Shown here: one piece after another, positions 11,005-41,930 of the stretch
How the letters are laid out: the number at the start of each line of letters is the position of its first letter
How positions within the stretch are numbered: the stretch's first letter is position 1
Assembly (NCBI GenBank): GCA_945860955.1
Contig: CAMATH010000073.1
Location: 1 to 41,930, forward strand
Direction: 5' to 3'
Source of the DNA: Planctomicrobium piriforme
Lineage (GTDB): Bacteria; Planctomycetota; Planctomycetia; Planctomycetales; Planctomycetaceae
Length of the DNA stretch: 41,930 bases
Notes under the pieces: model-generated
Told to the model about the DNA's origin: nothing
Databases searched by the model: none
The model's input: the letters and a program-made list of their open reading frames with translations, nothing else
Program-made: the position numbers and the translations under genes

Positions 11005-11454
<450 letters not shown>

Positions 11455-11458
<4 letters not shown>

Positions 11459-13964: not shown

Positions 13965-16900
13965 ATGTCGACTCTGTCCGTCTGTTCCCAACGCCTTCTC
14001 TGGGGGGTTCTCGCCGCTGTCGGGTGGCTTGTTCCCGGCCCCCTGGCTGCCGAAGAGCCGGTCAACTATCTGACCGAGATCAAACCTTTGCTCACGCGGT
14101 GTGTCGCCTGTCACGGAGCGCTCCGTCAAAAGAACGATCTGCGTCTCGACACCGCAGAACTGTTGAAAAAAGGGGGAGTGGGGGGGCCGGCGATTGAACC
14201 GGGTGACAGCCGGAACAGCCTGCTGATCGATGCGATTTCGGGCCGCGAGGGAGTCCCCCAGATGCCGCCCGCCGGCGAAGGGGAACCATTCAAGCCCGAA
14301 CAGATCGCTAAGCTGAAGGCCTGGATCGATCAGGGGGCCAAAGCACCCGCCGAGGAAACCCCTCCCGATCCCCGCAGTCACTGGTCGTACACTCCTCCCA
14401 AACGGGTCGCGACTCCCACCGTCGTCCATTCCGATTGGGTGAAGAATCCGATCGACGCATTTATCGCGGCGGAACATGCACGCCGGGGCTTGAAACCCGC
14501 TCCCCCTGCGGACCGTGCGACGCAGTTGCGGCGGGTGACGATCGACCTGACCGGCCTGCCTCCGACACGCGAGGAATTGCAGGCGTTTTTGCACGATGCC
14601 GCGCCCGACGCCTACGAACAGGTCGTCGACCGGTTGCTCAACAGTCCCCGCTACGCCGAGCGCTGGGGTCGCCACTGGATGGACATCTGGAGATACAGCG
14701 ACTGGTACGGCAGCCGGGGGGGGAACGAACTCCGCAACAGCCGACGGCATATCTGGCGGTGGCGCGACTGGATTGTCGAATCGCTCGAACGCGACAAAGG
14801 CTACGACCAGATGCTGACGGAAATGCTGGCTCCCGATGAACTGGAACCGGGCAATCTCGATCTGCAACGGGCGGGGGGATTCCTGGGGCGGAACTACTAT
14901 ATCTTCAACCGCCATGTCTGGCTGCAAGACACCGTCGAATTCACCGGGATGGCGTTGCTGGGGGTCACTTTCAAGTGCGCCCGCTGCCACGACCACAAGT
15001 ACGACCCGATCTCGCAAGAAGACTACTACCGCTTCCGGGCATTCTTCGAACCGTACGATGTACGGACCGATCCCATCCCCGGAAAGCCCGAGAAGTTGGC
15101 GGGCAACCAGGCCGCGATGGCACCTCCTGGAGCGACGCTCGCGCAAGGCAACGACATCGTCTACGACGCGCAGCCAGCCATTCCGACCTATCTCCTGGCG
15201 CGAGGGAACGAGAAGGACCCGGTGACTGAAAAGCCGTTGTCCCCCGCAGTCCCTGCGGTCTTGGCGACCGGAGAGATCGCGATCACCCCGATTCCGCTTC
15301 CGCTGGGGGCCTATTACCCGGAATTGCGTCCCGAGTTTCGGGAGGAATTGATCGCCGGCGGACGGAGAATGGTTGCCACTGCCGAGGAAGAGATTCATCG
15401 CGCAGCGGATGGAGTGGTCGCGCTGGAAAAGAGGTTGGCTCAACTGGCGGACGGCGCGGTTCTCCCCGTGGTCGCATCTGCGGGCGATCCGTTTCTGGTG
15501 GAGACATTCGAGAAGCCGCGCCCCGATCTTTGGCAGGTTCTGTCAGGTCAGTGGGAGAATGAAAACGGCCACCTGGTCGGAAAGCAGATCGGTTCGTTTC
15601 TGACGATGGTGACTCGGGCAAATCATCCCGCAGACTTTCAGGCGCGAGTTCGCTACAAGACGCTGGAGCCCGGGAGCGTGCATTCGGTGGGGGTCAGTTT
15701 TGATGTGGCCGAAAACGCCCGCGACTGGCAGGCGGTCTACACCGCCACCAACAACACCACCTCCACCGTCCAGGCGTTTCATCGTGTGGCGGGGGCCGAG
15801 GCGTATCCGCAGGCGGGAATTGTGCCGTTCCCATTCAAACTGAACGATGTGCTGACGGTTGACCTCGCGGTTCGCGGTTCACTGCTCAATGTCTGGGTCA
15901 ACGGCGAACTGAAGATCGCGTACAAGCTCCCCACCCCGCGGCAGGCGGGACGCTTCGCGCTTTGGCTGCACAGCGCGACGGCCGAGTTTCACGAACTCCG
16001 GATCGAACCGATCTCGGCGGAGCTGCGATTGGTGGAAAGTACGGCGACTCCCACACTCTCGCCGTTCGGTGTGCAGACGCGGGCTGATCTCGAAACTCAA
16101 ATCGCCCTGACCCGGGGAAAAGAGCTGGCGCTCAACGGAGCGTTGACGCTGGCGCGCGCGGAGGCGGTTGCGATCGAAGCCCGCGTCGCGGCGGAAATCG
16201 CGAAGTACACCGAGCCCGCGCCGGCGAATCGAACCGAACTGGCGATAGCCGCCGGGAAAGCGGAACGCCAGGTCGCCGTTCTGAAAGCGGAAAGTGCGGT
16301 TTCCGTCTCGGAATCGACCACTACGACGGCCCGCGCTGCCGTCCAGCCCGGGAACGAAGCGGCTATCAAAGCGGCAGCCGACGCCGAGGCGAAACTCGTC
16401 GCCGCCCGCAAGTCGCTCGACGACGCCCGCGCCGCTCTGGCGAAAGACGATCCGACGTATACCCCGTTGGGAACGGCGTACGGCAATTCCACCACCGGCC
16501 GCCGACTGGCCTTGGCCCGCTGGATCACCAACCGGTCAAATCCGCTGACGGCGCGGGTCGCGGTCAATCACATGTGGCTTCGGCATTTCGGCACGGCACT
16601 GGTTCCCAGCGTGTTCAACTTTGGCCTGAACGGGAAGCGTCCCAGCCATCCAGAACTACTCGACTGGCTCGCGCTCGAATTTATGGAGCGCGGCTGGAGT
16701 ACCCGGGCCATTCATCGCCTCATGGTGACCAGCAATACGTATCGGATGCAGTCCCAGGAGTCGGGCGTTGACGATCCCAATCTGACCGCCGACCGGGAGA
16801 ACCGCTGGTACTGGAGGGCGAATCCCAAACGGTTGGAGGCCGAAGTGGTGCGTGACGGGTTGCTGCACCTGGCGGGGGTTCTCGACCCGACCCGTGGTGG

Positions 16901-17405
16901 GGTCGATCTCGAACCGAACCAGGCCGACTTGGTTCTCCGCCGCAGCTTCTATTTCCGGCACACTCCCGACGATCGGGCCTTGATGCTGGAGTTGTTTGAC
17001 GCGGCGAACGCGTCGGAATGCTATCAGCGCGATGAGAGCATCGTTCCGCAACAGGCGCTGGCGTTGGTGAACGGCGTCTTCGCCTACGATCAGTCCCGGC
17101 GGATCGCGCGCAAACTGACCACGGGTGATGCGACTGGTGATCGTTCGGTTCCGGTGGATGATCCCGAGTTCGTGACACGGGTATTTGAACACGTCCTGAC
17201 TCGCTCGCCGCGAGAAGACGAACGTCGACTGTGCGAGAAATACCTGGTCGAACAGACCGCGCGTTACGCCGACGGTCCGGGACTGACCCCGGTCACCACC
17301 GGCCCGGCGGCCACAATCAAGCCGGCGAAAGATCCGCACGACCGCGCCCGCGAGAGCCTGGTGCATGTGCTGGTGAATTACAACGAGTTTCTGGTGGTGC
17401 GCTAG
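13965..17405 (+). CDS. PSD1-type protein: planctomycete cytochrome C, DUF1549, DUF1553
   Basis: This large exported planctomycete protein of 1146 aa has a signal peptide (1-29, cleavage near PLAAEE). A planctomycete cytochrome C domain follows with heme motif C46-V-A-C49-H50. Next comes DUF1549 (about 170-380) containing a second CxxCH, C338-A-R-C341-H342. A concanavalin-like DUF1080-type domain sits at about 505-690. An Ala/Glu-rich coiled coil spans about 700-830, and DUF1553 covers about 840-1140. The family is thought to act in extracellular polymer breakdown; its biochemistry is largely uncharacterised. The ATG at 13965 was chosen because an upstream extension of 41 residues lacks a signal peptide. 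It pairs with the DUF1501 gene downstream, a common planctomycete arrangement. Confidence 0.93.
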   Translation: MSTLSVCSQRLLWGVLAAVGWLVPGPLAAEEPVNYLTEIKPLLTRCVACHGALRQKNDLRLDTAELLKKGGVGGPAIEPGDSRNSLLIDAISGREGVPQMPPAGEGEPFKPEQIAKLKAWIDQGAKAPAEETPPDPRSHWSYTPPKRVATPTVVHSDWVKNPIDAFIAAEHARRGLKPAPPADRATQLRRVTIDLTGLPPTREELQAFLHDAAPDAYEQVVDRLLNSPRYAERWGRHWMDIWRYSDWYGSRGGNELRNSRRHIWRWRDWIVESLERDKGYDQMLTEMLAPDELEPGNLDLQRAGGFLGRNYYIFNRHVWLQDTVEFTGMALLGVTFKCARCHDHKYDPISQEDYYRFRAFFEPYDVRTDPIPGKPEKLAGNQAAMAPPGATLAQGNDIVYDAQPAIPTYLLARGNEKDPVTEKPLSPAVPAVLATGEIAITPIPLPLGAYYPELRPEFREELIAGGRRMVATAEEEIHRAADGVVALEKRLAQLADGAVLPVVASAGDPFLVETFEKPRPDLWQVLSGQWENENGHLVGKQIGSFLTMVTRANHPADFQARVRYKTLEPGSVHSVGVSFDVAENARDWQAVYTATNNTTSTVQAFHRVAGAEAYPQAGIVPFPFKLNDVLTVDLAVRGSLLNVWVNGELKIAYKLPTPRQAGRFALWLHSATAEFHELRIEPISAELRLVESTATPTLSPFGVQTRADLETQIALTRGKELALNGALTLARAEAVAIEARVAAEIAKYTEPAPANRTELAIAAGKAERQVAVLKAESAVSVSESTTTTARAAVQPGNEAAIKAAADAEAKLVAARKSLDDARAALAKDDPTYTPLGTAYGNSTTGRRLALARWITNRSNPLTARVAVNHMWLRHFGTALVPSVFNFGLNGKRPSHPELLDWLALEFMERGWSTRAIHRLMVTSNTYRMQSQESGVDDPNLTADRENRWYWRANPKRLEAEVVRDGLLHLAGVLDPTRGGVDLEPNQADLVLRRSFYFRHTPDDRALMLELFDAANASECYQRDESIVPQQALALVNGVFAYDQSRRIARKLTTGDATGDRSVPVDDPEFVTRVFEHVLTRSPREDERRLCEKYLVEQTARYADGPGLTPVTTGPAATIKPAKDPHDRARESLVHVLVNYNEFLVVR

Positions 17406-28057: not shown

Positions 28058-31000
28058 ATGCCGGCTGATCCCAAACCGCTGTTTCGACCGGATGTGCTGC
28101 GCGGCAGGTTGAAGCCGTTTACGCTTCCGCCGCACGTTGCCGACTGTCGTTCGATGCTGCGACGGTGGGATGAAGTTCTTTCGACCCGAACCGCCGGCCG
28201 ACTGAACGAACAGCAACTCCTGCCCGATTTTCTCACCGAGGTGTTCGGGCTGCTGTTGGGCTATTCGGGACCGGTCGCGGGGGGAGATCGCTATACCCTG
28301 TCGCGCGAACAACAGGTTGTGGTCGATGGCAAATTCGCCGACGCCGTGCTGGGGGAGTTCACGCCGGATGGAAAATCGTTCGCGGTTGTGATCGAAGGAA
28401 AAGGGCCGCGCGATCCGCTCGAACGTCCCTTCGGTGGCCGCAAAATGTCGGCGGTTGACCAGGCGTATCGCTACGCCATCAACCTTCCCTGCGACTGGAT
28501 AGTCGTCACGTCGATGCGCGAGACCCGGCTCTATTTCAAGGGGGCCGATCAGCAGACCTACGAACGGTTTGAGACGGCGAAGCTGGCATCGGACGAAGCC
28601 ACGTTGAAGCGGTTCGTCTTTCTGCTGGGGGCGGAACGAATCGTTCCGGCCGGGGGCCGATGCCACCTGTACGAACTCCGTGACGCGTCGGAGAAGGTGG
28701 GGCGTGAGATCACCAAAGAGTTCTACCAGCACTACGCCAACACCCGGCAGGATTTGTTTGAGTTGCTGTGCGCTTCGAACCCAGCGGTTCCTCGACGAGC
28801 GGTCCTTTCGTGCGCCCAGAAGCTGCTCGATCGGGTGCTGTTTGTGGCGTTTTGTGAGGACCGCGGACTGCTGCCGGAGGATTCAATCGCCAAAGCGTAT
28901 GCCTTTCGCAATCCCTATCAACCATTGCCGGTCTGGGAGAATTTCCGCGGACTGTTTCGGGCGATCAACGAGGGGCATGCTTCGCTCGACATTCCGGCTT
29001 ACAATGGGGGCCTGTTCGCGCCCGACCCGATTCTCGAATCCCTGGTCGTCGGGGATAATGCGTGCGACCATTTTCGCAATCTGGCGACGTACGACTACCG
29101 CAGCGCGGCGGACGCGGCCGACGAGGATGCGGGCGCGGGGCGGGGGACGCTGATCGATGTCGACGTGTTGGGGCATATTTTCGAGCAATCGATCTCCGAT
29201 CTGGAAGTACTCCAGAACGAACTCGACGGCTTGATCGAGACCGTCAGCGTTGAGAAACACAAAACGCGCCGAAAAAAGGAAGGGGCGTTCTACACCCCCG
29301 CGTTCATCACCCGCTACATCGTCGAACAGACGCTGGGGGGGGCGTTGCGGGACCGGTTTGAACACTTACGTCTGGAACACTCCGCGCGGTTGAAGGGAGC
29401 GGCTCGGGCGGCGCTCGACGATCCGCAGACGTATGACCTCGCGACGCTGAAAAAGTCGCAACGCGACGCGCTGGTGAAATTCTGGGAGGGATGGCAAGAC
29501 GAACTGACCACCGTGCGGCTGCTGGATCCCGCGTGTGGCAGCGGCGCGTTCCTGATCGAGGCGTTCGACCAGCTTCACATGAACTACCAGCAGTCGAACG
29601 ATCGTCTGGAGGAACTGCGGGGATCCCGCACACTGTTTGACCTCGACCGACAGATCCTGCAAAACAATCTGTATGGCGTCGACTTGAATGATGAAGCGGT
29701 TGAGATTTGTCGGTTGAGCCTGTGGATCAAGACCGCGGCGCGGGGCAAGGTACTGACCAGCCTCGACCATAACATTCAAACCGGAAACAGTGTTGTCGAC
29801 GACCCGGCGGTACATCCCCGCGCCCTCGATTGGAACCAGGCATTCCCCGAAGTCTTTTCGGCCGGCGGATTCGACGTTGTGGTGGGAAACCCGCCGTACA
29901 TTCGACAGGAGTGGTTGTCACCGTACAAGGCGCATTGGCAGAAGCAGTTCCAGAGCTACCACGGTGTCGCCGACATCTTCACGTATTTTTTTGAAGCCGG
30001 CATCAAACTTCTTCGCGACGGTGGTCGCTTGGGGTTCATTACCTCAGGAAGCTGGGTTCGAGGAAATTTTGGTGCCCCGCTTCGCCGGTTTTTGAGTTCG
30101 ACTGTGGCGATTGAGTCGATGATTGATTTTGGCGAATACCAGCCGTTCGAAGATGCGGAGATGATCCGTCCGACGATTCCAATCATCCAAAAGCGGCTTC
30201 CCGGCGGGCCAATGCGAATCTTCAAGTGGCTCACAAGCGGTCCGGTACCGCGACAATTGTCGGAACTTATCTCCGCCGCGCCGACCATGCGAACCGATGG
30301 CATGGGCGCGGGTGCGTGGGAACTCGACCCCGACAACGTCATTCAGTTGCGACAAAAACTGGCCGGCATTGGCATTCCGCTGCGGGACTACGCGACGGGA
30401 GGAATCTGTTATGGAGTCAAGACAGGATTGAATGAGGTGTTTGTCATCGGACCACAGAAACGCGACGAATTGATCGCCGCGGATTTGAAAAGTGCGCAGA
30501 TCATACATCCGTTCGTGCAAGGGACGCATTTGCGGCCGTGGTATGCCGAGAGGTCGGAGGAGTATTTGATCTTCACCCGCCGCGGTATCAACATCGACGA
30601 ATATCCGGCCATTCAAGACTATCTTGGGCAATTCCGTGCCCGTCTCGAACCCAAACCACCCGACTGGCCGAAAAATAAGAAGTGGCCCGGCCGAAAGCCC
30701 GGGACGTACGAATGGTTTGAACTCCAGGATTCCGTTGACTATTGGCGCGCGTTTGAAGAGCCAAAAATTGTCTGGCCCGACATCAGCAAGCTGCCGCGTT
30801 TCAGCATGGATCTCGAAGGCCGATACCTGGGAAACACCGGCTACGCAATTCCCGGGCTCGACTACTATTTGTTGGGAGTGTTGTCGTCCTGGACGACCTG
30901 GTTCTACATCAGCAAAACCGCGCAACCGCTCCGCCTACGAGCCGACCGCTGGCAGTATCGCTTGATTGCCCAATTCATGGAGCATTTACCGATTCCGGAT

Positions 31001-31417
31001 GCCAGCGAGCCGGACCGGGCTGCGATTGGAAACCTCGCGGAAGCCTGTTCAGCCGTCGGCCGACAGCGGTACGAGGTTCAGTCGCAGGTTTCTAGAAGGT
31101 TGTGGCAGTGTTTTGGTCAACGCGACAGCGGAGCATCGCTCGGCGAGTTGAACCGGAATGCCCAGGCTTGGTGGCGATGGTCACTGCCCCAACTCGGCGA
31201 CGCCCTCAAAACCAGTTTTTCCCTGCCAGACAATCCGTTCAAAAAGCCCCGGATTGTCGACGATTGGGACGGCTACCTCGCGGAGAAGCGGGCGGTCGTC
31301 GACACCCTCACGCGGAGGCTCGCCGACTGTGAGGCCGAGCTGAATGACCGCGTGTTCCACCTGTTTCAACTGACTCCCGCAGAAATCGAATTACTCCAGC
31401 GCGAAGTGGAGCATTGA
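28058..31417 (+). CDS. Type IIG restriction-modification enzyme (Eco57I-like)
   Basis: This 1119-aa single-chain enzyme is expected to cut DNA and to methylate adenine. The N-terminal region (about 85-140) has a PD-(D/E)xK-like nuclease pattern: D95, E113-G-K115, and Gln135 in VDQAYRYA. A helical linker follows. The N6-adenine methyltransferase core has motif I DPACGSGAFLIEAF at about 490-503 and motif IV NPPY at 611-614, with RRKKEGAFYTP before it. The C-terminal 450 residues probably hold the target recognition domain. No separate specificity or methylase gene is nearby. It is read in the same direction as the nuo genes. Specificity cannot be inferred. It is not a BREX PglX by context: no brx genes are present. 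Confidence 0.88.
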   Translation: MPADPKPLFRPDVLRGRLKPFTLPPHVADCRSMLRRWDEVLSTRTAGRLNEQQLLPDFLTEVFGLLLGYSGPVAGGDRYTLSREQQVVVDGKFADAVLGEFTPDGKSFAVVIEGKGPRDPLERPFGGRKMSAVDQAYRYAINLPCDWIVVTSMRETRLYFKGADQQTYERFETAKLASDEATLKRFVFLLGAERIVPAGGRCHLYELRDASEKVGREITKEFYQHYANTRQDLFELLCASNPAVPRRAVLSCAQKLLDRVLFVAFCEDRGLLPEDSIAKAYAFRNPYQPLPVWENFRGLFRAINEGHASLDIPAYNGGLFAPDPILESLVVGDNACDHFRNLATYDYRSAADAADEDAGAGRGTLIDVDVLGHIFEQSISDLEVLQNELDGLIETVSVEKHKTRRKKEGAFYTPAFITRYIVEQTLGGALRDRFEHLRLEHSARLKGAARAALDDPQTYDLATLKKSQRDALVKFWEGWQDELTTVRLLDPACGSGAFLIEAFDQLHMNYQQSNDRLEELRGSRTLFDLDRQILQNNLYGVDLNDEAVEICRLSLWIKTAARGKVLTSLDHNIQTGNSVVDDPAVHPRALDWNQAFPEVFSAGGFDVVVGNPPYIRQEWLSPYKAHWQKQFQSYHGVADIFTYFFEAGIKLLRDGGRLGFITSGSWVRGNFGAPLRRFLSSTVAIESMIDFGEYQPFEDAEMIRPTIPIIQKRLPGGPMRIFKWLTSGPVPRQLSELISAAPTMRTDGMGAGAWELDPDNVIQLRQKLAGIGIPLRDYATGGICYGVKTGLNEVFVIGPQKRDELIAADLKSAQIIHPFVQGTHLRPWYAERSEEYLIFTRRGINIDEYPAIQDYLGQFRARLEPKPPDWPKNKKWPGRKPGTYEWFELQDSVDYWRAFEEPKIVWPDISKLPRFSMDLEGRYLGNTGYAIPGLDYYLLGVLSSWTTWFYISKTAQPLRLRADRWQYRLIAQFMEHLPIPDASEPDRAAIGNLAEACSAVGRQRYEVQSQVSRRLWQCFGQRDSGASLGELNRNAQAWWRWSLPQLGDALKTSFSLPDNPFKKPRIVDDWDGYLAEKRAVVDTLTRRLADCEAELNDRVFHLFQLTPAEIELLQREVEH

Positions 31418-31601: not shown

Positions 31602-34600
31602 TTACGGCTCTACCTCTCCGTTGATCCGCCTCTCGGCTTCGCGGTACAGGATCCGGGCGATCAGGAGGTCGTGGCCGCGTTTGCTTGGGTCGGCCTCCAG
31701 TTTTCGAATGGCCTCTTGCGCCAGTTTCAGCGTCTGCCGGGCTTCGTCGAGACGTTCCAGGCGAATCTGGGCCAGGGCGAGGATGGTCAGGTTCATGGCG
31801 TGGGCCACTTCCGCCGGCTTCAATTCTTCGGATTTCGCCACGAACTTCACGGCCGACTGGGCATCGCCGCTGCGGTAGGCCCACAGGGCACGGCTCCCCC
31901 AGGCCCACGGCAGAAGCCCGTCGGGTCCGATCCCGTCGTCCAGGATTTTGCCGAGTCTAATGCCGGGGAGTTTCGCGACATTGATGGAATCGGGGCGCAA
32001 CAGCGCGGCCTTGATGATTCGGTCGGGAACTTCCGGAAGGTCCGAATCCGCGAAATGGCGAGCCATACGGTCACAGTAATTCGCATAGGCTTCCTGGTCG
32101 TCAGCCAAGGCCAGAACCGGCGCGACGCGGAGCCACACCAGGGTATCTTCCAAGAGGTCGTTTCGCTTGAACTGCACAAGATGCAGGCCGAACTCGGCCG
32201 CTTCGTTCCAGCGCTCGGCTTTTTGGAATACATCAAAGGCGGCCTGTGTCTGGTCGGGCTGCTGCGCGACGATGCGCCACCAATCGACTTGCGCCAGGTT
32301 CCAGTTGCCAGCGCCGACGTGGGCGGCGGCACGTTTGGACAGCAGGGCCACTTCGGTCGTCGCGTCGGTGATCACTCTGCCATAGAGGGCGATCGCCCGC
32401 TCCCAATTCTTTTCCGCGGCGTACTGGTCGCCGACTCCCGCCGCGGCTGCCGGATGACGCTCGAAGAGTTTGTCGAGCGCCGACTGGTCTCCAACGAGCC
32501 GGTACGCCGCAGCGAGTTTCACCCAGGGGTCGACGATTTTCATTGCGGCGGAACGATTCTGCTCGCGATCAAAGGCGTCCGGGTCGGCATTCACCGCCAG
32601 ACGGAACCGGCCCAAATTGATTCCTTCGCCAAAGTCCTTGTGGCGCAGTTCGATGACGAGGGAACGGCCGCGGCTGGCCGCAGCGGCGGTCTTTGCGACT
32701 CCAAAGACCGCCTGATGGGCTTCGCCAAAGCGGCCCCAGACATGCCAGACCTTCTGCACTGTTTCGTCGACGATTCCGGCGATATCGGCGTCGTTTGCCT
32801 TGTAATCGAAGCTCGCCCAGGCGGAAGCCAGTGGGAGAGGGGTCAGGCCACTTCCGCCGTCGTTCTCGGCGTCATAAACGCGAAACGCGGTGAGCTGAAA
32901 ATTGCCCGAAGAATGCCGTCCCGGACCCTGGTTGGGAAGGCTTGAATCGGGCATCGCTTCGAGACGAACCGCGGCGATCCGGTCGACGTCGGCGACTGCG
33001 CGCAGTGTGTAGACGTCGCCGGCGGTGTTGGTTCCGGACGCCAGGATCGAGCCGTCAGCCTGCAGCGTCAATGTCGCTCCTTTTTCGGACTTCATCTCCG
33101 TCGGCTGCAGGACCGTCCAGCGGGTGGCGTCGCTGTCTGTCGCCGGAGACAAGAGCAGTCGGGCGAGTTCGGACGCGAGCTCAGCGTCGTCGGGGGCCGC
33201 TGCCAGTCGCTGTTCAAACAGCGCGCGGGCTATTGTTTGGGCGGCGGCTGCCGAAGAGGCATCACCCTGTTCGGCAAAATGGCGCGCCAGCTCGGCCTGG
33301 AACTGCCCGTTACCCGCGCCCCGCTTCGCCAGTATCTCGAGCATTCCGGGCAGCGGCGCGGCGGCGGCGATGACCCGGACCTGGCCGGCGCGGTCGGTCG
33401 CAAGCTCAATCGCCTGCGTGAACGAGGCCAGGGCTTCTTTCTTCTGGCCTTGCTGGGCCTGGGCGCTGGCCAACGCGACGCTCGCGTCGGCAATTTCGTT
33501 GGGATTCAGGCTTGTAAAGATTGCCGTTCGCGTGAATGCGTCGGTTTCACCCGTCACCAGCAACCGGAACCGACCCAGGCCGTGTTGCCCCCATTCCGTG
33601 ATCCCTGAGTCGAGCGTGATGCTCAATGAGCCGCCGTCGACTTGTACGGGGGTTGTCATACCGAAGACGGCCCAGTGGGGACCCCTGTTGGGATACGTAT
33701 CCCAGCGTGTCTGCGGGTTCCCGTCGAGCATATTCTGGGCGCTCCCGAATTGCTCGTTGTCGGCGATCACCGAAGAGATGACGATCGGCGTCGATGATTC
33801 CTGCGCATCGCCGGAGACGATGGCGGAGGTCAATTCCGAGACATGGAAGTTGCCATTCTCGCGATAACGGCCGGCACCGCCTTGAGGCAGCCGCGGATCG
33901 GGGATCGTCTCGAGGCGAATCGCCGTAACGGTGTGTAATTCCGTCTTCAATTTCAGCGTGTACACCGCCCGGTCAGGGTTGGGGCCACTGACGAAAATGC
34001 TGCCGTCGTTCTCGGCGGTGAATGTCTCGCCGCCGACAGAACTGAATTCCGTCGGTGTCAGCACCGTCCACTGCGTCGGGGCCGAAACGCGAGCATAAGC
34101 CTGCTGGGCTTGCTGCAACAAAGAGATTGCCTGGTCAATTTGGCCGGCCGTCAGCGCCTGCTGACCGCGAGCGGTCAGGCTGCGGGCGAGGGCGAACTGC
34201 CATTGGGGCGCATCGGGGAATTGTTCGACGAGAGAGAACAGCAAGTCGTCGTTCCGCGAGACGGCTTCGAAGATCGCTGTTCGAGTCGCCCCATCGGACG
34301 CCTGATTCCAGGCTTCCGACGGTTCGACCTGCCGCAGCACGATCGAGTCGATTTCCAACGGGTGTTCTTTCGCCGTATTGGGATCCAGACGCAAAGCGTT
34401 CAATGTCCCCTGGCACCAGAACGGGAGCGTGATCTCGCGCCATGCACCGGGCGAAGCGGGGATCGGGTAGTCGCGATGCCGTGAATCGGCCAAGCCCCCC
34501 GTCGAATCCCCCCAGAAGACCTGAATCGTAAATGGCTCGTCGGTGCGATACCGCAGGACAACCGCCTTACCCCCCACCGGGCCGTTCACAGCCGTCATGA

Positions 34601-37600
34601 AATTCGGATCATCGCCGAGCGTGCGCGCGGTGAGCACACCATCTTTGACCGTCAGCTCGCAGTGATTGACCGGAGTCCATGGTTCGGGGACTGCGTCAAA
34701 ATTCCAGACGGCGATGGCACCGGCCCGGAACTGCTCGACCCGCTCTTTCCACAATTCGTTTTCGGGCTGCAATTTTACGAGCCGCTCGTGCAGGTCGCGC
34801 GCCAGTTCAAGCTTCCCTCGTTCACCGGCAGAGAGCGCCAGCCTGGGCAAGAGACCGGCGTAGGAGTCGGGGTGCCGGGCTTGCAGCGAATCGACGACTT
34901 CGTGCGTCAGACAACCGCTGTCCAGCAAGGCAGCGATGTCAATTTTCTCCACCGACCGCGCCAGCAGATCGGCGGCGCGTTGGGTGTCGCCGGCCAACAC
35001 GTACGCCGCGGCCAGTTTCGCCCAGGGATCGGTGATCTTCGGTACTGCGAAGCGACTGCGTTCCTGATCAAGGGCTCGGGGATCGTCCGTAGCCGATAGA
35101 CGGAAGCGACCGATCAAGAGTCCTAATTTGTGGGCGTCGTTGAAATGGTTCTGCCGGAGAGCGATCCTCAGAACCGTAGAACTCCCTGTGATCGGATGCT
35201 CGGGTTTCACAACCAGCCGATGCGGAATTCGGTTCTGTGGAGTACCCCAGCCTTTTTCATCGTTCTGCCCGTCGATCACGTATCGGGCCATCTCATAACC
35301 CGCAGTTCCTTCGTAATCCGCCAGGGCTTCCTTCATGACAACAGGCTGCGGCCGGCCTGACTCATCCAGGAGGGAGACATGAAATTCCGACAAAATGCAT
35401 CCGCCCCACTGACCGCGTCCTACATTGCCGCCATGGATTTCGTGCGGCAAGATGTCGAGGGCGATTGCGGTGATGTTCTTGAGATCGACCGGAACCTCGA
35501 TTGTGTAGTCGTCACGATTCGGGTGCATACCACTGCTGAGGATCGACCCATCCGGCAGCAGCTTTAGCGTCGCACTGGCTTCTGATTTCAAATCGGTCGG
35601 TTTCAGAACTGTCCAGCGAGTGGCGTCACGGCGTTCTTGCTGCTCCAGCAGCCCTCGCGCGAGTTGCGTGGCCGCCGCCCGATTGCCAGGGTCTTGTTCC
35701 AGCAATCGTTCGTCCTCTTGTTGTGTGAGCAGTGCCGCCTTGTCGGTCACGGCGGCGACATCGGTCCACAGCGCCCGCCAGGCATTCCGCTCGGCGGCGG
35801 GCAGACCGGCCAAGGCCTGGGCGTCACGGAGACCGGCCAGGTCGACGTCTTGTGTCCACCCTGTCAGAGCGCGAACCGCACGGGTTGGAATCGGGGACGA
35901 ACCCGCTTCAAGGGCTTGGGTCCAGGTGGCCAGTTCCGCTTGCAGCCAGGCGAGAGCCTGCCGGCGGAGCTTGGCTGTCGCAGCGTCATCCTCCGGCAGT
36001 TCTCCCTGACCCTGCCCGGCAGCGGCCAACACCGCGGCCCGCGCGGCCTGGTAGCGAATCTGCGCCAAGCGATCATCGCCGGCCTGCAGGTCGCTTTCGA
36101 GTGTCTCGGCCCAGAGCCGGGCGGCGAAGGCGTATTGCTTCGCGTCATACGCGATGCGGGCGAAGTCGAGGCGTTCGGCATTATTGGCGGGCTGGTCCTC
36201 GCCGCGCAGCACCGCTGGAAGTCGCTGGGCGAGGGGACGATCGACTTCCTTCCAGAAATCGGCGGCGGGTTGGGTGTTGATTTTCGCGAGGGTCTTGATC
36301 GCCCGCAGGACTCGGGCGTCACGCGCCGGCTGAAAATCACATTGCACCTCCGTCAGCGGTAGATCCACGAGCGGCGACAGATCGGTGACGGGCGCGCCCT
36401 GCACCTGGAGATTCGTGACTTGCATCCCGCGGAGCGGAGACAGGTCCGACACCTTGCTGTTTAACATGACCAGCGTCCCCAGCGGCATCCCGCGGATTGG
36501 CGACAGGTCCGAGACTTTGGTGTTGTGGATCGCCAGGGTCGTCAGGGGGACGTCCTTAAGCGGCGACAGATCGGTGACCTGGCTGGAGTCGCAATTGAGA
36601 TAGGTCAGCTTCATCTCCTTGAGCGGCGTCAGGTCAATCACTGGGGCACCGTAGATTGTGAGACTTTCCAGGGGCGTTCCTCGCAGTGGGGAGAGGTCAC
36701 GAAGCTTGTTCGCAGTGATAATGTGCAAATGGCGCAGCTTCATTCCCTCCAACGGCGACAGATCGAAAACGCTGGTCGAATGGAGCTCGAGGGTGGTCAA
36801 GTTCATTCCACGGAGCGGCGAGAGATCGGTCACCTCCGCACCGCTCAAATGCAGACGCGGAAGTTCGGGAATTGCCCGAATCGGGCTGAGATCACGATAG
36901 CCGGGCGGATTTATGGTCAATTGGACAACGACACCGTTTTCGATCACAGATTCGACGGGAGCTTCTTTCCCCGAATTGCGTTTCTTCAACTCGGCGCGAA
37001 CCGCCTCGACCTGTTCGGCCGCGGGAAGAGCGCGAAAGCTGGTCTTCTCGGCCTTGCTCAACAACGCAGCCGCGTCGGCCCATAAGCGAGTGAACGCCTG
37101 CTGTTCCGCCTCCGGGAGATCGGCTCGGGTGGCTGCCGGATCGCGGAGGCTGGCGAGGTCGCTGCTCTCGTTCCAGAGAGTCAGAGCCTGGATGATTGAC
37201 AGTCGTTCCTGAGGCGTGGCTGATTCAAGCAACTTGCTCCAGGCCGCCAGTTCGGTCGTCATCCATTCGAGGGCCTGCCGGCGTAACATCGCTCTCCCCG
37301 AATCGTCGAGCGCCGACTGTTCCGAACCGGGGGTTGCCAGTGCTGCGGCCGTGGCGATCATCCGGGCTCTGTCGGTGCGGTCCGGGGACAGATGCAGCGA
37401 TTCTGTGAACGACGCGATGGCATCGCTTGTTTGGCCGTACTGGGCCTGCGCCTGTGCCAACGCAGCGTACAGTTTGGCGATTTCGTTGTCTTTGAGATCT
37501 CGGCGCATCGCCGTTCTTACAAAGGCTGTGGGATCATCGGTCACCGAGATGCGAAAACAGCCCAGAGTGCCGTGGGATCCCGGCCCACTGCCGGTTGAAA

Positions 37601-40600
37601 GTTCAACGACCAGGCTCGTCGCAGCCGGATCCTCGGTCTGTTGGCGCAGTTCAAAAACGGCGTTTTGTGGCCGCTTGACTTCGGGCCACATGTCCCAACC
37701 CGAGATGAATCGGCCGTCAACTCCCCGCTGAAACGCAGGCTTGTTGTCGCGATTATGGCTGACCACGGCGTCGCTGATTTGCAGCGGCAGGCGAGCCGCG
37801 ACCAGCGTTCCACCAGCCCGAATCCTGGCAACAGTCAAATTGCTCACGCCGCCGTATCCGTTGTTGTCGCGACCCGATCCCCCATTGGGAAGCGACGGAT
37901 GCGGCAGCGCTTCCAGACGGACGGAGGTGACGCGGGCCAGCCCCAGCGGCGCGACGATCGTATACGTCTCCTGATCGGGGCTGGCGCCGCTGGCCAGAAT
38001 GGAGCCGTCGGATTGAAGGGTGAGCGTGGTCCCGGCTTTGGATTTCAATTCACTCGGCGACAGCACGGTCCAATTCGTCTCACCACTGCGGAGGCTTGCG
38101 AACAGCTTGCGGAATTGCTGCAGGTCGGCCACGGCACTTTCGACCTGCTTGTCTGCGAGATGTTGCCGGCCGCGTGTTTCCAGCTTCCGGAAAAGTTCCA
38201 CCAGAACCGCCGTATTACCTGGCGCACGCGCAGCGAGTTGTTCGAGGACGCCAGGCAGCGGCACCGCGGCGGCGATGATTTGGGCTTGATCGGCCCGAGC
38301 ACCGGTTTGGTTGAGCAACCTGGCGAATGTGTCCGCAGCTGCGCTGGTGTTCCCTTGCCGGCCCTGCGCCTTTGCCAATGCCAAGTCGAGCGACACGATC
38401 TCGCTCTCTTGAATCTGCAGAGGAATTCGCCGTCGTTCCGCCTCGAGCGCTTCGGGATCGTTCGTCACCGAGACCCGGAATCGCCCGAGATTATGCCGGC
38501 TGGCCAGTCCGCGCGCGAAATGCAGCTCGATCTTGAGGTCGTCATCTGCAGCCCGCGTCATTCGAGTCGCCAGATAGGCGGTATGCTTCTCGCCGGGCTT
38601 TTGATACTTGCCCCAACTCGCGATTTTATCGACCCGACCGTCAATGATTTTTCGAAATTCCTGCGCTTCGTCGTCGGCAACGATGACGTCCAGCAGCGGG
38701 AACGGCTTCCCCCGGGAAAACAGCCGCAGCTCGTTCAGCCAGAAATTGCCACAGGTACACCTGCCCGGGCCGTTCTGGGGAAGTGACGGGTCAGGGATGG
38801 CCTCCAGCCGGATACCGGCGATCTGCTCCAGGCCGGGCCGGGCGACGAGAGTGTAAACTTCGGGATATTGGATTTCACCACTGGCCAGAATCGAGCCGTC
38901 TTCCAGCGGTGTCAGGGTCGCGCCCCCCTGGGATTTGATCTCGATCGGTTTCAGAACAGTCCACTGAGGCTCGGGGTAGGTTTCCAGAAGCTCGGTGAAT
39001 TCTTGGCGGGCCAGAGTCAGTTCCGGAAGCGATCGGTCTTTCTGCTTCTGGCCGACCTCTTCGCTGCCTTGGCGAGTCAGGCTGCGTGTGTGCGCAAGTT
39101 GCAGCGCAGGATCAGCGTGCCGCGTTTTTCGCAGTTCCGCCAGCAGATCAGGAAATTCACCGAGAGCTTCGAGGAGCGACATTCTGCCTTCAATCCTCGT
39201 GGCGTCATCGAGCGCCTTAACGGCCCAAATGGCCGCATCTGCGGTCTGGCCCTGGCGGGCATAGGCGAAGGCCAGCAGGATCCGAGGATCTGCGATTTTC
39301 GTTGGCGGCCGTACTCGGCCGGGCGCCGCAGGGACCGGCGTGCTCTCCGTTTCGGTCACCGAGATCCGGAAACGCCCGCGGGGATTGAATCCTGAGTCTT
39401 CGCTCAAGCGGAGCAACCATTGCGGCATGTCAGCTTTCGCATCGGGAGTCTTTGCGACGAGCAGGCTCCGGCAGTCGATCGCCCGCGACGGCTTCGGCGC
39501 CGCGTCGATGACCTGTTCCAGCACGACGTTGCGGTCTGCATCGAGCACGCGGATGCGGAAGTGGTTCATGCGATTGTGGTAGTCGGCATCGGTATCAGTG
39601 AGAGTCCAGACCACCATGCGGTCGATTGTCTGTTCGCCGCCCAGATCCAATTCCCACCAGGGATCAGCATCGTTCAGGGCCGTGTGAGCAAAGAGCTTGC
39701 TAGGGTAAATTCCAGCCGAGTCGCCGTCGACGGCGAGTGCGGCCTTGAAGTTCAAATAGTCGCTCGACTGTCGAGCCATTTTTCCCAGTGCGACATTCTC
39801 CTCGCCGCTAAGAACCTGCAATTCTGCCAGGTTGATGCACTTGACAGCGCCTTCCACTTTCATTCGTGGAAACTGCGAGTTGTCCCCCGGCAGATCGAGC
39901 CGCACGTAGCGGCCCAGCAAGCCGCCGGATTCTGAGCGTGGAGCATTGATTGCCTCAACGCGGTAATCCTTGAAGGCAGACGATCCGGTCTCATTCGCGG
40001 CAGAGCCGCTGGCGGTTTCGACGCGGATCGCTTTGACCTCAGCGGCCAGCACCGGCAGGGACAGAGAATCTTCGGACGCTCCAACAATCCAGGAACCGTC
40101 TTCCTGGGCAGTCAGTGGAGTCTCGGCAGGCAGTACTACATTCGATGGTTGGGACACAGTCCAATTCCCGTTCGGCGTGCCGATTGCATCCGCTGGAACA
40201 GTCGTTTCGTCGGTCACGGAAACGCGAAGTCGCCGCCACGGATTCTGCTCGCGATGGCTGTCGAAGCTGACCTGCCAATGAGCGACCCCATCTGCTGCGT
40301 CAGTTTCGACCCTCGCCAACTGAACCGGACGTGCGATCTCCGTGGACGGCGATGGAGCCTTATCGATGACCCGCTCAAAGACCAGCTCTCGATTGGCATC
40401 CAGAACCTGGACACGAAAATGGTTCATTCGTGGATAGTATTGAACACCCGTTCGATTCCAGACGACCATCCGATCAAAGGCCTGCTCGCTGCCAAGATCA
40501 ACTTCCCACCAGGGATTGCTGGTGTCCCAGGTGTGGGCGTAGGAATGAGTTTCATCGTTGCCCGCCGTATTTCCATCCACGGCACGCTCGGGTGCATAGT

Positions 40601-41930
40601 GGCCATCACCGCTGCTGGCGCGCGCCTTGTTGTTCAGCGCAAGATTCTGATCACCCTGGAAGATCTGGAACTCGGACAGGTTGACGTATTTCCGGTTGTT
40701 GTCGGCCGAATGCCGCGGAAACTGACTGTTGTCCCCCGGCAGATCGATCCGCACGTAGCGTCCGCGGAAGCCCTCGGCCGGCAGGTTTGTCGACAGAATC
40801 TGGTATTCTGTAAAGGACGACTTGTCCTTGCTTGCCGGTGCGGGGTCGGGTGCGGTTTCGATGCGGATGGCCTGAAGCGAGTTGCCGGGCTCGGTCAGCT
40901 TGAGGGTGTACGGTATCTGTTCGAGGACCAGCGATTCGTCTTCCTGCACGGACAGAGTTTGTCCGAAGGGAGCCTTCAGCTCGGCGGGTTGCAGTGTCGT
41001 CCATTCAGTTACCGCGCTCATGTCGAGCAGCAGCAGCGCGGCCAAGGCGTCGATGGCGGGGGCGTCTCCAGGATCGGCCTGCAGCGCCTGTTCCAGAATC
41101 GTTCTGGCGCGTTCGCGCTGAGCGGCGGCGAGGGCGTGCTGTCCGGCATTTTGCAACCGTCCGGCGAAGTCCGTCAGCAACTTTGCGCCCGCCGGATTCT
41201 CTTTGGCGGCCCGCGACCAGTCGGCGGCAGCGGCCTCCCAGTTTTTGAGCGCTTCGTATGCGCGGGCCCGTTTCGAGAGCAGGTCGACATCGGTCGTCTG
41301 GGCGGTGATGCCCCGGCTGTAGATCGCAATCGCCCGTGACCAGTCTTTTTCCTGGTTCTGAACAAACAGGTCACCGACTTTGCCCGCCAGTTTCGGGCGC
41401 CGCTCGACCAGTTGGTCAATGGCTTCAGGCTGGCCCAGGAGATCGAAGACCGCAGCCAGTTTTTGCCAGGGGTCGGTGAGCTTCATTTCGGCGAAGCGTT
41501 TCTGGGCATTCACGTCCGCACCCGGATCAGCACTGACGGACAGACGGAATCGTCCCAAATTGTGCTGGGGAAATGATGCACGGGAGGTGACAAGTTCCAA
41601 TTTCAATGTGTCGTCGGCCGCAAGTTCAATGTCGGTTGCAAACACCGCGGTATGCCGCTGCCCCGTCTGTGGCCAGATGGACCAGAAATTGGCGTCAACG
41701 GTCCCATCGATGATTTGTCGATATTGCTCTGTTGCAGTTGGGTCTGAGAACGAGACGACGATCCCCTCTGACTGGTGCGGAGTCCCATTGATCAACACGC
41801 GAAACTCGTTGAGGTGGAAATTCCCATGCTCCGGCCACCTTCCAGGGCCATTGTGGGGAAGGGAAGCATCCGGAATCGCTTCCAGGCGAATTGCCTTGAT
41901 GGGCTGCGGCGCCACGTGAACGGTGATCTC
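31602..41930 (-). CDS. Giant multidomain repeat protein, 5' end outside the window
   Basis: At least 3442 residues are encoded and the frame is open through base 41930, so the N-terminus is missing. The GTG at 41913-41915 lies inside a repeat and is not a credible start. The visible part alternates TPR-like helical stretches with about eight beta-rich modules marked by WTVLxPxE-x-S, then DGSILASG, then IRLEAIPDPSLP, then LGRFRLSVT. Two modules contain discoidin-like (F5/8 type C) inserts, and a nine-unit leucine-rich repeat lies in the middle. A sandwich-like domain is encoded near 34320-34720. The C-terminal TPR tail resembles those of planctomycete Ser/Thr kinase proteins, so a kinase domain beyond the window is possible. 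A related LGRFRLSVT module occurs in PSD1-type proteins. No membrane segment is visible. Confidence 0.85.
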   Translation of the reverse strand, partial: EITVHVAPQPIKAIRLEAIPDASLPHNGPGRWPEHGNFHLNEFRVLINGTPHQSEGIVVSFSDPTATEQYRQIIDGTVDANFWSIWPQTGQRHTAVFATDIELAADDTLKLELVTSRASFPQHNLGRFRLSVSADPGADVNAQKRFAEMKLTDPWQKLAAVFDLLGQPEAIDQLVERRPKLAGKVGDLFVQNQEKDWSRAIAIYSRGITAQTTDVDLLSKRARAYEALKNWEAAAADWSRAAKENPAGAKLLTDFAGRLQNAGQHALAAAQRERARTILEQALQADPGDAPAIDALAALLLLDMSAVTEWTTLQPAELKAPFGQTLSVQEDESLVLEQIPYTLKLTEPGNSLQAIRIETAPDPAPASKDKSSFTEYQILSTNLPAEGFRGRYVRIDLPGDNSQFPRHSADNNRKYVNLSEFQIFQGDQNLALNNKARASSGDGHYAPERAVDGNTAGNDETHSYAHTWDTSNPWWEVDLGSEQAFDRMVVWNRTGVQYYPRMNHFRVQVLDANRELVFERVIDKAPSPSTEIARPVQLARVETDAADGVAHWQVSFDSHREQNPWRRLRVSVTDETTVPADAIGTPNGNWTVSQPSNVVLPAETPLTAQEDGSWIVGASEDSLSLPVLAAEVKAIRVETASGSAANETGSSAFKDYRVEAINAPRSESGGLLGRYVRLDLPGDNSQFPRMKVEGAVKCINLAELQVLSGEENVALGKMARQSSDYLNFKAALAVDGDSAGIYPSKLFAHTALNDADPWWELDLGGEQTIDRMVVWTLTDTDADYHNRMNHFRIRVLDADRNVVLEQVIDAAPKPSRAIDCRSLLVAKTPDAKADMPQWLLRLSEDSGFNPRGRFRISVTETESTPVPAAPGRVRPPTKIADPRILLAFAYARQGQTADAAIWAVKALDDATRIEGRMSLLEALGEFPDLLAELRKTRHADPALQLAHTRSLTRQGSEEVGQKQKDRSLPELTLARQEFTELLETYPEPQWTVLKPIEIKSQGGATLTPLEDGSILASGEIQYPEVYTLVARPGLEQIAGIRLEAIPDPSLPQNGPGRCTCGNFWLNELRLFSRGKPFPLLDVIVADDEAQEFRKIIDGRVDKIASWGKYQKPGEKHTAYLATRMTRAADDDLKIELHFARGLASRHNLGRFRVSVTNDPEALEAERRRIPLQIQESEIVSLDLALAKAQGRQGNTSAAADTFARLLNQTGARADQAQIIAAAVPLPGVLEQLAARAPGNTAVLVELFRKLETRGRQHLADKQVESAVADLQQFRKLFASLRSGETNWTVLSPSELKSKAGTTLTLQSDGSILASGASPDQETYTIVAPLGLARVTSVRLEALPHPSLPNGGSGRDNNGYGGVSNLTVARIRAGGTLVAARLPLQISDAVVSHNRDNKPAFQRGVDGRFISGWDMWPEVKRPQNAVFELRQQTEDPAATSLVVELSTGSGPGSHGTLGCFRISVTDDPTAFVRTAMRRDLKDNEIAKLYAALAQAQAQYGQTSDAIASFTESLHLSPDRTDRARMIATAAALATPGSEQSALDDSGRAMLRRQALEWMTTELAAWSKLLESATPQERLSIIQALTLWNESSDLASLRDPAATRADLPEAEQQAFTRLWADAAALLSKAEKTSFRALPAAEQVEAVRAELKKRNSGKEAPVESVIENGVVVQLTINPPGYRDLSPIRAIPELPRLHLSGAEVTDLSPLRGMNLTTLELHSTSVFDLSPLEGMKLRHLHIITANKLRDLSPLRGTPLESLTIYGAPVIDLTPLKEMKLTYLNCDSSQVTDLSPLKDVPLTTLAIHNTKVSDLSPIRGMPLGTLVMLNSKVSDLSPLRGMQVTNLQVQGAPVTDLSPLVDLPLTEVQCDFQPARDARVLRAIKTLAKINTQPAADFWKEVDRPLAQRLPAVLRGEDQPANNAERLDFARIAYDAKQYAFAARLWAETLESDLQAGDDRLAQIRYQAARAAVLAAAGQGQGELPEDDAATAKLRRQALAWLQAELATWTQALEAGSSPIPTRAVRALTGWTQDVDLAGLRDAQALAGLPAAERNAWRALWTDVAAVTDKAALLTQQEDERLLEQDPGNRAAATQLARGLLEQQERRDATRWTVLKPTDLKSEASATLKLLPDGSILSSGMHPNRDDYTIEVPVDLKNITAIALDILPHEIHGGNVGRGQWGGCILSEFHVSLLDESGRPQPVVMKEALADYEGTAGYEMARYVIDGQNDEKGWGTPQNRIPHRLVVKPEHPITGSSTVLRIALRQNHFNDAHKLGLLIGRFRLSATDDPRALDQERSRFAVPKITDPWAKLAAAYVLAGDTQRAADLLARSVEKIDIAALLDSGCLTHEVVDSLQARHPDSYAGLLPRLALSAGERGKLELARDLHERLVKLQPENELWKERVEQFRAGAIAVWNFDAVPEPWTPVNHCELTVKDGVLTARTLGDDPNFMTAVNGPVGGKAVVLRYRTDEPFTIQVFWGDSTGGLADSRHRDYPIPASPGAWREITLPFWCQGTLNALRLDPNTAKEHPLEIDSIVLRQVEPSEAWNQASDGATRTAIFEAVSRNDDLLFSLVEQFPDAPQWQFALARSLTARGQQALTAGQIDQAISLLQQAQQAYARVSAPTQWTVLTPTEFSSVGGETFTAENDGSIFVSGPNPDRAVYTLKLKTELHTVTAIRLETIPDPRLPQGGAGRYRENGNFHVSELTSAIVSGDAQESSTPIVISSVIADNEQFGSAQNMLDGNPQTRWDTYPNRGPHWAVFGMTTPVQVDGGSLSITLDSGITEWGQHGLGRFRLLVTGETDAFTRTAIFTSLNPNEIADASVALASAQAQQGQKKEALASFTQAIELATDRAGQVRVIAAAAPLPGMLEILAKRGAGNGQFQAELARHFAEQGDASSAAAAQTIARALFEQRLAAAPDDAELASELARLLLSPATDSDATRWTVLQPTEMKSEKGATLTLQADGSILASGTNTAGDVYTLRAVADVDRIAAVRLEAMPDSSLPNQGPGRHSSGNFQLTAFRVYDAENDGGSGLTPLPLASAWASFDYKANDADIAGIVDETVQKVWHVWGRFGEAHQAVFGVAKTAAAASRGRSLVIELRHKDFGEGINLGRFRLAVNADPDAFDREQNRSAAMKIVDPWVKLAAAYRLVGDQSALDKLFERHPAAAAGVGDQYAAEKNWERAIALYGRVITDATTEVALLSKRAAAHVGAGNWNLAQVDWWRIVAQQPDQTQAAFDVFQKAERWNEAAEFGLHLVQFKRNDLLEDTLVWLRVAPVLALADDQEAYANYCDRMARHFADSDLPEVPDRIIKAALLRPDSINVAKLPGIRLGKILDDGIGPDGLLPWAWGSRALWAYRSGDAQSAVKFVAKSEELKPAEVAHAMNLTILALAQIRLERLDEARQTLKLAQEAIRKLEADPSKRGHDLLIARILYREAERRINGEVEP
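36359..36900 (-). repeat. Nine-unit leucine-rich repeat in the giant protein
   Basis: Nine units of about 23 residues carry DLSPLRGM-like starts (DLSPIRAI, DLSPLEGM, DLTPLKEM and others). Between starts the pattern is LxxLxLxxxxVxDLSPL. This should form a short curved solenoid for protein binding. It is flanked by TPR-like segments rather than by membrane or signal sequence. Confidence 0.8.
39495..40665 (-). repeat. Two discoidin-like (F5/8 type C) domains in the giant protein
   Basis: Two homologous domains at about 40665-40365 and 39815-39495 (coding order) share N(L/V)ALxxxARxSS, AVDG, an (S/N)xxWWE(V/L)DLG core and RMVVW with NHFR(V/I)(Q/R)VLDA. Such domains bind sugars or other ligands at cell surfaces. 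They are inserted in the second and third beta modules. Confidence 0.8.

What the first reader, a model, noticed from the sequence alone, without database searches (positions are those of the whole stretch)
31602..41930. Giant protein mixing TPR, leucine-rich, discoidin-like and PSD1-like beta modules
At least 3442 residues hold about eight beta modules with a WTVL...DGSILASG...RLEAIPDPSLP...GRFRLSVT pattern, two of them with discoidin-like inserts, plus nine leucine-rich units. The module pattern is known to me from PSD1-type proteins, which bind or act on polymers. Such a scaffold could link many ligands, and if a kinase domain lies upstream it would be a very large receptor-like protein.
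Basis: partly seen in the sequence, partly recalled or inferred. Interest (0 to 1): 0.7.

Follow-up and report, generated by a model that had tools for sequence, protein, structure and literature searches.

The report
Giant STAND protein with module array
This is the back two thirds of a roughly 5,000-residue bacterial membrane protein that joins an immune-type NTPase switch to a long arm of repeated, sugar-binding-like modules, with a protein-kinase gene next to it; it looks like an outward-facing relative of the sensors that run bacterial defence.

Summary
31602-41930(-) is one intact 3,442-residue frame, open only because the contig ends there. It holds six full and two hybrid copies of a ~175-residue beta module, nine leucine-rich units and TPR linkers.

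The missing N-terminus lies on another contig of the same genome (16-base overlap unique in 8.4 Mb; same frame; one module completed across the join). The whole protein is 5,033 residues: nSTAND1 NTPase, one membrane helix, WD40 propellers, TPRs, module array. No kinase was found in it. The gene just upstream encodes a Ser/Thr kinase with TIR_2-like, DUF4062 and further TIR-like parts. The pair recurs in relatives (partner found in 8 of 101 family genomes, own included), with 0 to 8 modules.

The module is not PSD1. It is an unnamed domain found beside PSCyt2 and PSD1 in 29 of 30 other ORFs scanned. Its model (pLDDT 93) is a galactose-binding-like beta-sandwich.

DUF4062 was recently reported as a TIR-like NADase, but this family has Gln where 23 of 23 other DUF4062 domains have Glu (7 of 7 members), so the likely output is the kinase.

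Best reading: a membrane STAND receptor with an outside glycan-sensing arm. Function is inferred. New variant of a known kind.

The parts
31602..41930 (-). 3' two thirds of the giant gene (3,442 codons + stop); the 5' 1,591 codons lie on contig C56 of the same genome (L045:17-4789, minus strand)
41526..41930 (-). module M0 (3' part; its first ~37 residues are on contig C56)
   Evidence: complete across the join, 159.8 bits with the external profile
40197..41009 (-). hybrid module M1 with F5/8 type C (discoidin-like) domain
39336..40163 (-). hybrid module M2 with F5/8 type C (discoidin-like) domain
   Evidence: weak module signal, i-E 0.3; model low confidence
38457..38963 (-). module M3 (the one modelled; pLDDT 93.2, pTM 0.90)
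37533..38072 (-). module M4
36339..36920 (-). nine leucine-rich units of about 21 residues (outer boundaries set by eye)
   Evidence: internalin-type LRR profile matches far below their cut-offs
35082..35615 (-). module M5
33546..34070 (-). module M6
   Evidence: sister of G011 module 1 (100/98)
32583..33119 (-). module M7
   Evidence: groups with the G071 module and the second G081 module (row L090; 99/96)
31605..32582 (-). C-terminal TPR-like helical region
   Evidence: sub-cut-off TPR hits

Best explanation
The window gene is the C-terminal part of a 5,033-residue single-pass membrane STAND receptor. Shown by sequence: an N-terminal nSTAND1 NTPase with Walker A and B, one predicted membrane helix at about residues 526-553, WD40 propellers, TPRs, and an array of galactose-binding-like modules joined by TPR-type linkers. 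Also shown: a neighbouring gene for a Ser/Thr kinase with TIR_2-like, DUF4062 and TIR-like parts, paired with the nSTAND1 gene in relatives. Inferred: the NTPase and kinase are in the cytoplasm, and the ~4,480-residue C-terminal arm is in the periplasm or outside. The modules, F5/8 domains and leucine-rich units bind surface or environmental glycans or proteins, for example envelope or attacker surface material. Binding is relayed through the helix to the NTPase, which oligomerises with ATP, gathers the partner through its TIR-like domains and switches on the kinase. The TIR-like parts act as scaffold rather than NADase, because DUF4062 has Gln for the catalytic Glu. The sensor arm changes fast while the NTPase stays fixed, as expected for a conflict or defence receptor.
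For: Join: 16-base exact overlap found only at the two contig ends in the genome; frame kept and a complete module restored. Domains: nSTAND1 298 bits over a 27.1 cut-off, WD40; Walker A G[TA]SGSGKS and Walker B-like VDQFEE in 6 of 6 proteins examined. One hydrophobic helix in 6 of 6, with Arg/Lys on its N side. Same-strand neighbour pair in G000, G011, G071 and G075 with the kinase read (only its 3' part in G011, whose contig starts inside it), and in G081, where the partner is broken into frames and only its TIR/DUF4062 part was aligned; G017 has a TIR protein without the kinase beside nSTAND1-WD40. NTPase 93.3% identical to G011 but WD40 43.2%. Module count 8 (window), 3 (G011), 1 (G071), 2 (G081, one partial), 0 (G075). 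Module elsewhere in PSCyt2/PSD1 proteins with CxxCH in 29 of 30, which places it outside the cytoplasm. CBM-type fold neighbours. DUF4062 Gln in 7 of 7 against Glu in 23 of 23. Kinase motifs GxGxxG, AAIK, HRDIKPAN, DFG intact. Periplasmic WD40/TPR arms on membrane kinases are predicted in Planctomycetota (PMC11032199, passages).
Against: No ligand, topology or activity is measured. WD40 and TPR domains are as often cytoplasmic, and Arg also follows the helix. The window's kinase and giant genes are separated by about 370 bases that include a dispersed repeat, so cotranscription is not shown there. The system is rare and not in a proven defence island; the only defence-like gene seen beside the giant gene in the window is a convergent Eco57I-type gene (10 ORFs scanned). 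Best Foldseek E for the module is 5.5e-3; below the top hit (Z 11.4) the listed VIA Z values are 6.8-8.7, a level the tool says may mean only a common arrangement, so the fold class is good but the ligand is not known. No EAD adaptor was identified (not searched for separately). The 25 shown of 36 PADLOC hits of the partner lie in its kinase part. One of the seven Gln rows, G017, is only 24% identical and has no Pfam DUF4062 hit. The giant frames in G002, G011 and G081 are split into overlapping or adjacent frames.
Confidence: 0.5

Rival explanations
1. Ordinary environmental sensing: the arm binds polysaccharide food or attachment surfaces, and the NTPase and kinase regulate metabolism or surface life, not immunity.
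For: The module's common home is PSCyt/PSD1 proteins, linked to carbohydrate metabolism because some carry CBMs (PMC5615132, passages). The fold neighbours are CBMs and glycan enzymes. Membrane kinases with WD40/TPR arms are known signalling proteins in the phylum (PMC11032199, passages).
Against: Patchy presence (8 of 101 family genomes), a fixed NTPase with a fast-changing sensor and TIR/DUF4062 partners are more typical of conflict systems (PMC7159879, PMC10907252; passages).
Confidence: 0.27
2. Canonical abortive-infection NADase: the STAND protein triggers TIR or DUF4062 NAD+ depletion in the partner.
For: DUF4062 is a TIR-like NADase in the Swarozyc antiphage system and TEP1 (PMC13174449; abstract, first part of the results section and passages). 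DUF4062, NTPase and WD40 here parallel TEP1, split over two genes.
Against: Gln stands in the column where 23 of 23 other DUF4062 domains have Glu, in 7 of 7 members. The first TIR has Glu at the expected place in only 2 of 6 readable members, not in the window's own (motif position recalled from TIR NADases). The last TIR-like part has Lys or Gln there in 7 of 7 (position recalled).
Confidence: 0.13
3. Purely cytoplasmic scaffold: the hydrophobic helix does not set topology, and the arm binds intracellular partners.
For: WD40, TPR and LRR are common cytoplasmic protein-binding repeats (general knowledge); 17 Cys in the 4,463 residues after position 570.
Against: Strong helix in 6 of 6 homologues examined; CBM-like modules otherwise found in exported cytochrome-type proteins.
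Confidence: 0.07
4. A non-functional, drifting giant gene or an assembly chimera.
For: The gene broke at a contig end inside a repeated module; homologues in G002, G011 and G081 show split frames.
Against: 5,033 codons without a stop, dN/dS about 0.05 for the NTPase and about 0.3 for WD40 (from the dN and dS); unique 16-base overlap and homology continuity.
Confidence: 0.03

Closest known systems
STAND NTPase-centred conflict systems (Kaur et al. 2020, PMC7159879; DGR-diversified nSTAND1 sensors, PMC10907252)
   Same: STAND NTPase (nSTAND1 in some), superstructure-forming repeats or lectin-like variable sensor region, neighbouring effector-type gene
   Different: Single predicted membrane helix with a ~4,480-residue arm of up to eight CBM-like modules; kinase partner with a Gln-substituted DUF4062; no EAD adaptor identified; DGRs not searched for
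DUF4062 TIR-like NADases: Swarozyc and TEP1 (PMC13174449)
   Same: Partner gene carries DUF4062; DUF4062 + NTPase + WD40 logic as in TEP1
   Different: Parts split over two genes; Gln in place of the conserved Glu; kinase added; nSTAND1 in place of NACHT
Planctomycetota membrane Ser/Thr kinases with WD40 or TPR arms (PMC11032199)
   Same: Cytoplasmic signalling domain, one helix, long WD40/TPR arm; such a kinase-WD40 protein is encoded two genes upstream (P0006)
   Different: NTPase in place of the kinase in the arm-bearing chain; module array
PSCyt1-PSCyt2-PSD1 proteins
   Same: Share the module
   Different: Usually one module copy; the giant protein has no PSCyt or PSD domain above cut-off

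Membership tests
nSTAND1 NTPases (PF20703) | nSTAND1 domain above curated cut-off, with Walker A and B | tested here: met
   298.4 bits against 27.1; GTSGSGKS and VDQFEE
STAND conflict or defence systems | STAND NTPase with repeat superstructure next to an effector-type gene | tested here: met
   WD40/TPR arm; kinase-TIR-DUF4062 gene adjacent in G000, G011, G071 and G075, a broken one in G081
STAND conflict or defence systems | Demonstrated protection or cell-death output | not testable with these tools
   needs experiment
STAND conflict or defence systems | Effector-associated (EAD) adaptor domains | not tested
   none seen among Pfam hits shown, but only the best 25 of 48 hits are displayed for P0002
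DUF4062 NADases (Swarozyc/TEP1 type) | DUF4062 domain present (partner gene) | tested here: met
   30.2 bits against 24.7
DUF4062 NADases (Swarozyc/TEP1 type) | Conserved catalytic Glu | tested here: not met
   Gln in 7 of 7 members, Glu in 23 of 23 others; that this column is the published catalytic Glu is inferred
PSD1/PSCyt proteins | PSCyt1, PSCyt2 and PSD1 domains | tested here: not met
   absent from the 11 hits of P0001, where only a weak PSD5 hit below cut-off appears
Galactose-binding-like / CBM fold (module) | Beta-sandwich matching known CBM folds | tested here: met
   pLDDT 93.2; Z 11.4, 133 residues at 2.9 A to the C-terminal part of galactanase BT0290, then CBM6/22/29/32/35/86 members at Z about 7-8, a level that alone would not decide
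Galactose-binding-like / CBM fold (module) | Carbohydrate binding | not testable with these tools
   no assay
Receptor Ser/Thr kinases | Kinase domain in the same polypeptide as the receptor arm | tested here: not met
   kinase is in a separate gene; none found in the giant protein (25 of 48 P0002 hits shown)

The most novel reading that the evidence does not exclude
A bacterial outward-looking NLR-like immune receptor: a membrane STAND protein that reads extracellular glycan patterns with a rapidly recombining array of carbohydrate-binding-like modules, and answers through a kinase recruited by catalytically silenced TIR/DUF4062 domains. This would merge the roles of a surface pattern-recognition receptor and a cytosolic NLR in one 5,000-residue protein.
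Probability: 0.25. Interest if true: 0.8.

Novelty: new variant of a known kind. Interest (0 to 1): 0.52.

Why it matters
STAND immune proteins characterised in bacteria mostly look inward, at phage proteins inside the cell (recalled). A membrane-anchored version with an exported recognition arm would show that bacteria also couple this switch to outside signals. The module array, whose copy number differs between relatives while the NTPase stays fixed, gives a concrete system for studying how such sensors evolve. The Glu to Gln change shared by this branch of a recently described NADase family makes a clear prediction (signalling by kinase, not NAD+ depletion). The module itself is an unnamed, widespread domain of the planctomycete PSD1 proteins (module found in 91 of 294 phylum genomes) for which I give a confident fold.

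Tried and rejected
PSD1 membership: rejected, because the module sits beside PSD1 and is not PSD1. Kinase in the same chain: not found; the N-terminus is nSTAND1. Self-comparison of the protein by BLAST returned only the whole-length self match; as the modules are 32-47% identical to the first one, this says something about the BLAST step and not about repeats, and I do not use it. Solved structures by sequence: nothing for the module (best E 0.38) and nothing meaningful for DUF4062. One recent tandem duplication giving all modules: not supported, since M6 pairs with G011 module 1 (100/98) and M7 with the G071 module and the second G081 module (99/96; that row is labelled psd_L090 in the script, but lies on the G081 contig); M0 and M3 pair with 93/97 support; 11 of 26 inner branches of that tree are open, and its other psd_ rows were not scanned for PSD1. 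Linkers after M0 and M7 are 43% identical over 144 residues, so module and linker seem to have been copied together. Model of hybrid M2: pLDDT 47.9 with two sequences, not used; whether F5/8 is inserted in the module or replaces its middle stays open. Distribution: partner protein in 8 of 101 family genomes and 1 of 392, the own one, in a phylum draw (stricter E, at most 3 candidates per genome scored, so a lower bound). Literature: searches did not list a paper describing this two-gene system or naming the module; the library holds open-licence papers only. PMC8195603 was seen only in listings.

Full report
What is in the window. The minus-strand frame 31602-41930 is 3,442 residues long with no stop and runs off the contig. 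The window is contig C73 of an 8.40-Mb, 282-contig genome, so the end is an assembly end. It holds six full modules (M0, M3-M7) and two hybrids (M1, M2) carrying F5/8 type C domains, nine leucine-rich units, and TPR-type linkers. A profile built only from 66 modules of other organisms recovers the six full ones at i-E 1.3e-31 to 6.5e-50 and part of M1 at 1.7e-7; M2 is weak at 0.3 but is 42% identical to M1. Twenty shuffles gave nothing at E up to 10.

The missing N-terminus. A module search of the own genome found the first 42 module positions at bases 2-127 of contig C56, in a frame running off that contig end, while the window begins at module position 38. The two ends share 16 bases, and this 16-mer occurs nowhere else in the genome. 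By my arithmetic a chance overlap of this length among 564 contig ends is expected about 4e-5 times. The joined frame has 5,033 codons from its ATG and one stop, at the end, and M0 becomes a full module. A relative, G011, has nSTAND1, helix, WD40, TPRs and modules in the same order on one contig.

Architecture. nSTAND1 occupies P0002 residues 20-456 at 298 bits, with GTSGSGKS and VDQFEE. One hydrophobic helix follows at residues 526-553, seen in 6 of 6 homologues examined. WD40 repeats come next, then TPRs and the array. No kinase hit was seen, though only 25 of 48 Pfam hits are displayed for P0002.

The partner. Directly upstream on C56, same strand, lies an 820-residue protein with a protein kinase domain (166 bits), TIR_2 (22.6 bits, below the cut-off of 28), DUF4062 (30.2 bits over 24.7) and a further TIR-like C-terminal region, which I recognise by eye. 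The kinase motifs are intact. The same pair, on one strand, is present in G011 (contig starts inside the kinase), G071 and G075; in G081 the partner is broken into frames, with a kinase motif and the TIR/DUF4062 part both present; in G017 a protein with TIR_2 above cut-off, but lacking the kinase, stands before nSTAND1-WD40. In G011 the two genes overlap by four bases; in the window's genome about 370 bases separate them. The partner was found in 8 of 101 family genomes at E up to 1e-10, the own genome and fragments in G079 included. Further upstream is a kinase-helix-WD40 protein.

Catalytic residue. A 2026 preprint (PMC13174449; abstract, first part of the results section and passages read) reports that DUF4062 is a TIR-like NADase needing a conserved Glu, in the antiphage system Swarozyc and in TEP1. 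I aligned 23 other DUF4062 domains from the same phylum: all 23 have Glu at the Sx[TV]xxE motif, whereas this family has Gln in 7 of 7. One of the seven, G017, is only 24% identical and has no Pfam DUF4062 hit; without it the count is 6 of 6. The equivalence of this column to the published Glu is my inference. The first TIR has Glu at the usual place in 2 of 6 readable members and not in the window's genome; the last TIR-like part has Lys or Gln in 7 of 7 (these positions rest on recalled TIR motifs). Hence I expect signalling by the kinase.

The module. Of 30 other module-bearing ORFs scanned, 29 carry PSD1 and PSCyt2 and 25 PSCyt1. In the one shown in detail the module begins near residue 492, between PSCyt2 (227-434) and PSD1 (785-1042). 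29 of 30 have CxxCH, and c-type haem attachment happens outside the cytoplasm (established knowledge). The exception, in G037, is a WD40-TPR-module protein. Pfam gave no hit at all on the modelled module, and among 74 modules mostly weak F5/8 (15 members, best E 0.00047) and CBM_AftD (12 members, best E 0.003) hits appear. The AlphaFold2 model has pLDDT 93.2 and pTM 0.90. Foldseek gave no hit at E below 0.001; VIA-align puts galactanase BT0290's C-terminal part at Z 11.4 (133 residues, 2.9 A), with many CBMs at Z about 7-8, which the tool warns may be common arrangement only. The module occurs in 91 of 294 phylum genomes at E up to 1e-10 (at most 11 candidates per genome scored); in the listed rows, a capped list, no ORF apart from the window's exceeds 2,000 residues.

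Evolution. Against G011 the NTPase is 93.3% identical (dN 0.04, dS 0.74), while WD40 is 43.2% (dN 0.57, dS 1.75, near saturation) and the TPR region 43.0%. Module numbers found are 8 (window), 3 (G011), 1 (G071), 2 (G081, one partial), 4 (a G002 locus whose N-terminus is not on the contig), and 0 in G075 and G017. Some modules pair across genomes (M6 with G011-1) and linkers are copied with modules. This fixed-switch, changing-sensor pattern is in line with the diversifying conflict systems and diversified sensors of PMC7159879 and PMC10907252 (passages read).

Mechanism and alternatives. I favour a membrane receptor with the arm outside. The topology is inferred from one helix, basic residues on its N side, the exported home of the module, and predicted periplasmic WD40/TPR arms of planctomycete kinases (PMC11032199, passages including part of the abstract). 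Glycan binding is inferred from fold only. Regulation of polysaccharide use is the main rival: PSCyt proteins carrying CBMs were linked to carbohydrate metabolism (PMC5615132, passages). The NADase rival is weakened by the Gln. Decay or chimera is unlikely.

Organism. So this is very probably a planctomycete. Proteins above 5,000 residues are enriched in Planctomycetota (PMC11573180, passages), so size alone is not surprising.

Noticed in passing
window 28058-31417 (+): Eco57I/MmeI-type restriction-modification methyltransferase gene, convergent with the giant gene and ending about 185 bases from its stop; a possible sign of a defence neighbourhood.
   Followed up: no
window 13842-17405 (+): A PSCyt1-PSCyt2-PSD1 protein in the same window whose middle holds a 3-keto-disaccharide hydrolase domain; the module search of the own genome gave no hit there.
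   Followed up: no
window 34329-34718 (-): By eye, a further beta-rich stretch after M5 (begins AIAVWNFDAVPEPW, residues 2405-2534) with no Pfam match; may be another binding module.
   Followed up: no
L045:519-538 and 4798-4817 (contig C56): A dispersed repeat (GATGAAGGNGGAAGGATGAA, 8 copies in the genome) lies once inside the giant gene, read as MKDEGGRMKDE, and once just before its start.
   Followed up: partly
L045:7674-11930 (-): A kinase-helix-WD40 protein gene ends 53 bases before the kinase-TIR-DUF4062 gene; it may belong to the same operon.
   Followed up: partly
L046, L047, L072: The related giant genes in G011, G002 and G081 are split into overlapping or adjacent frames (3,038 + 679 and 1,344 + 609 residues in the first two); assembly error, decay or programmed frameshift not told apart.
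   Followed up: no
L045 partner gene and homologues (alignment A4): DUF4062 with Gln in place of Glu in 7 of 7 members: an apparently inactive branch of a recently described NADase family.
   Followed up: yes
G000, other contigs (e.g. C55:34546-36249): The own genome has 11 nSTAND1 matches over the cut-off, the second best on C55 in a 1,781-residue frame; no module hit on that contig.
   Followed up: no
window 8235-12954 (-) and 3661-4689 (+): Nitrogen genes near each other: GlnD, ammonium transporter, glutaminase.
   Followed up: no
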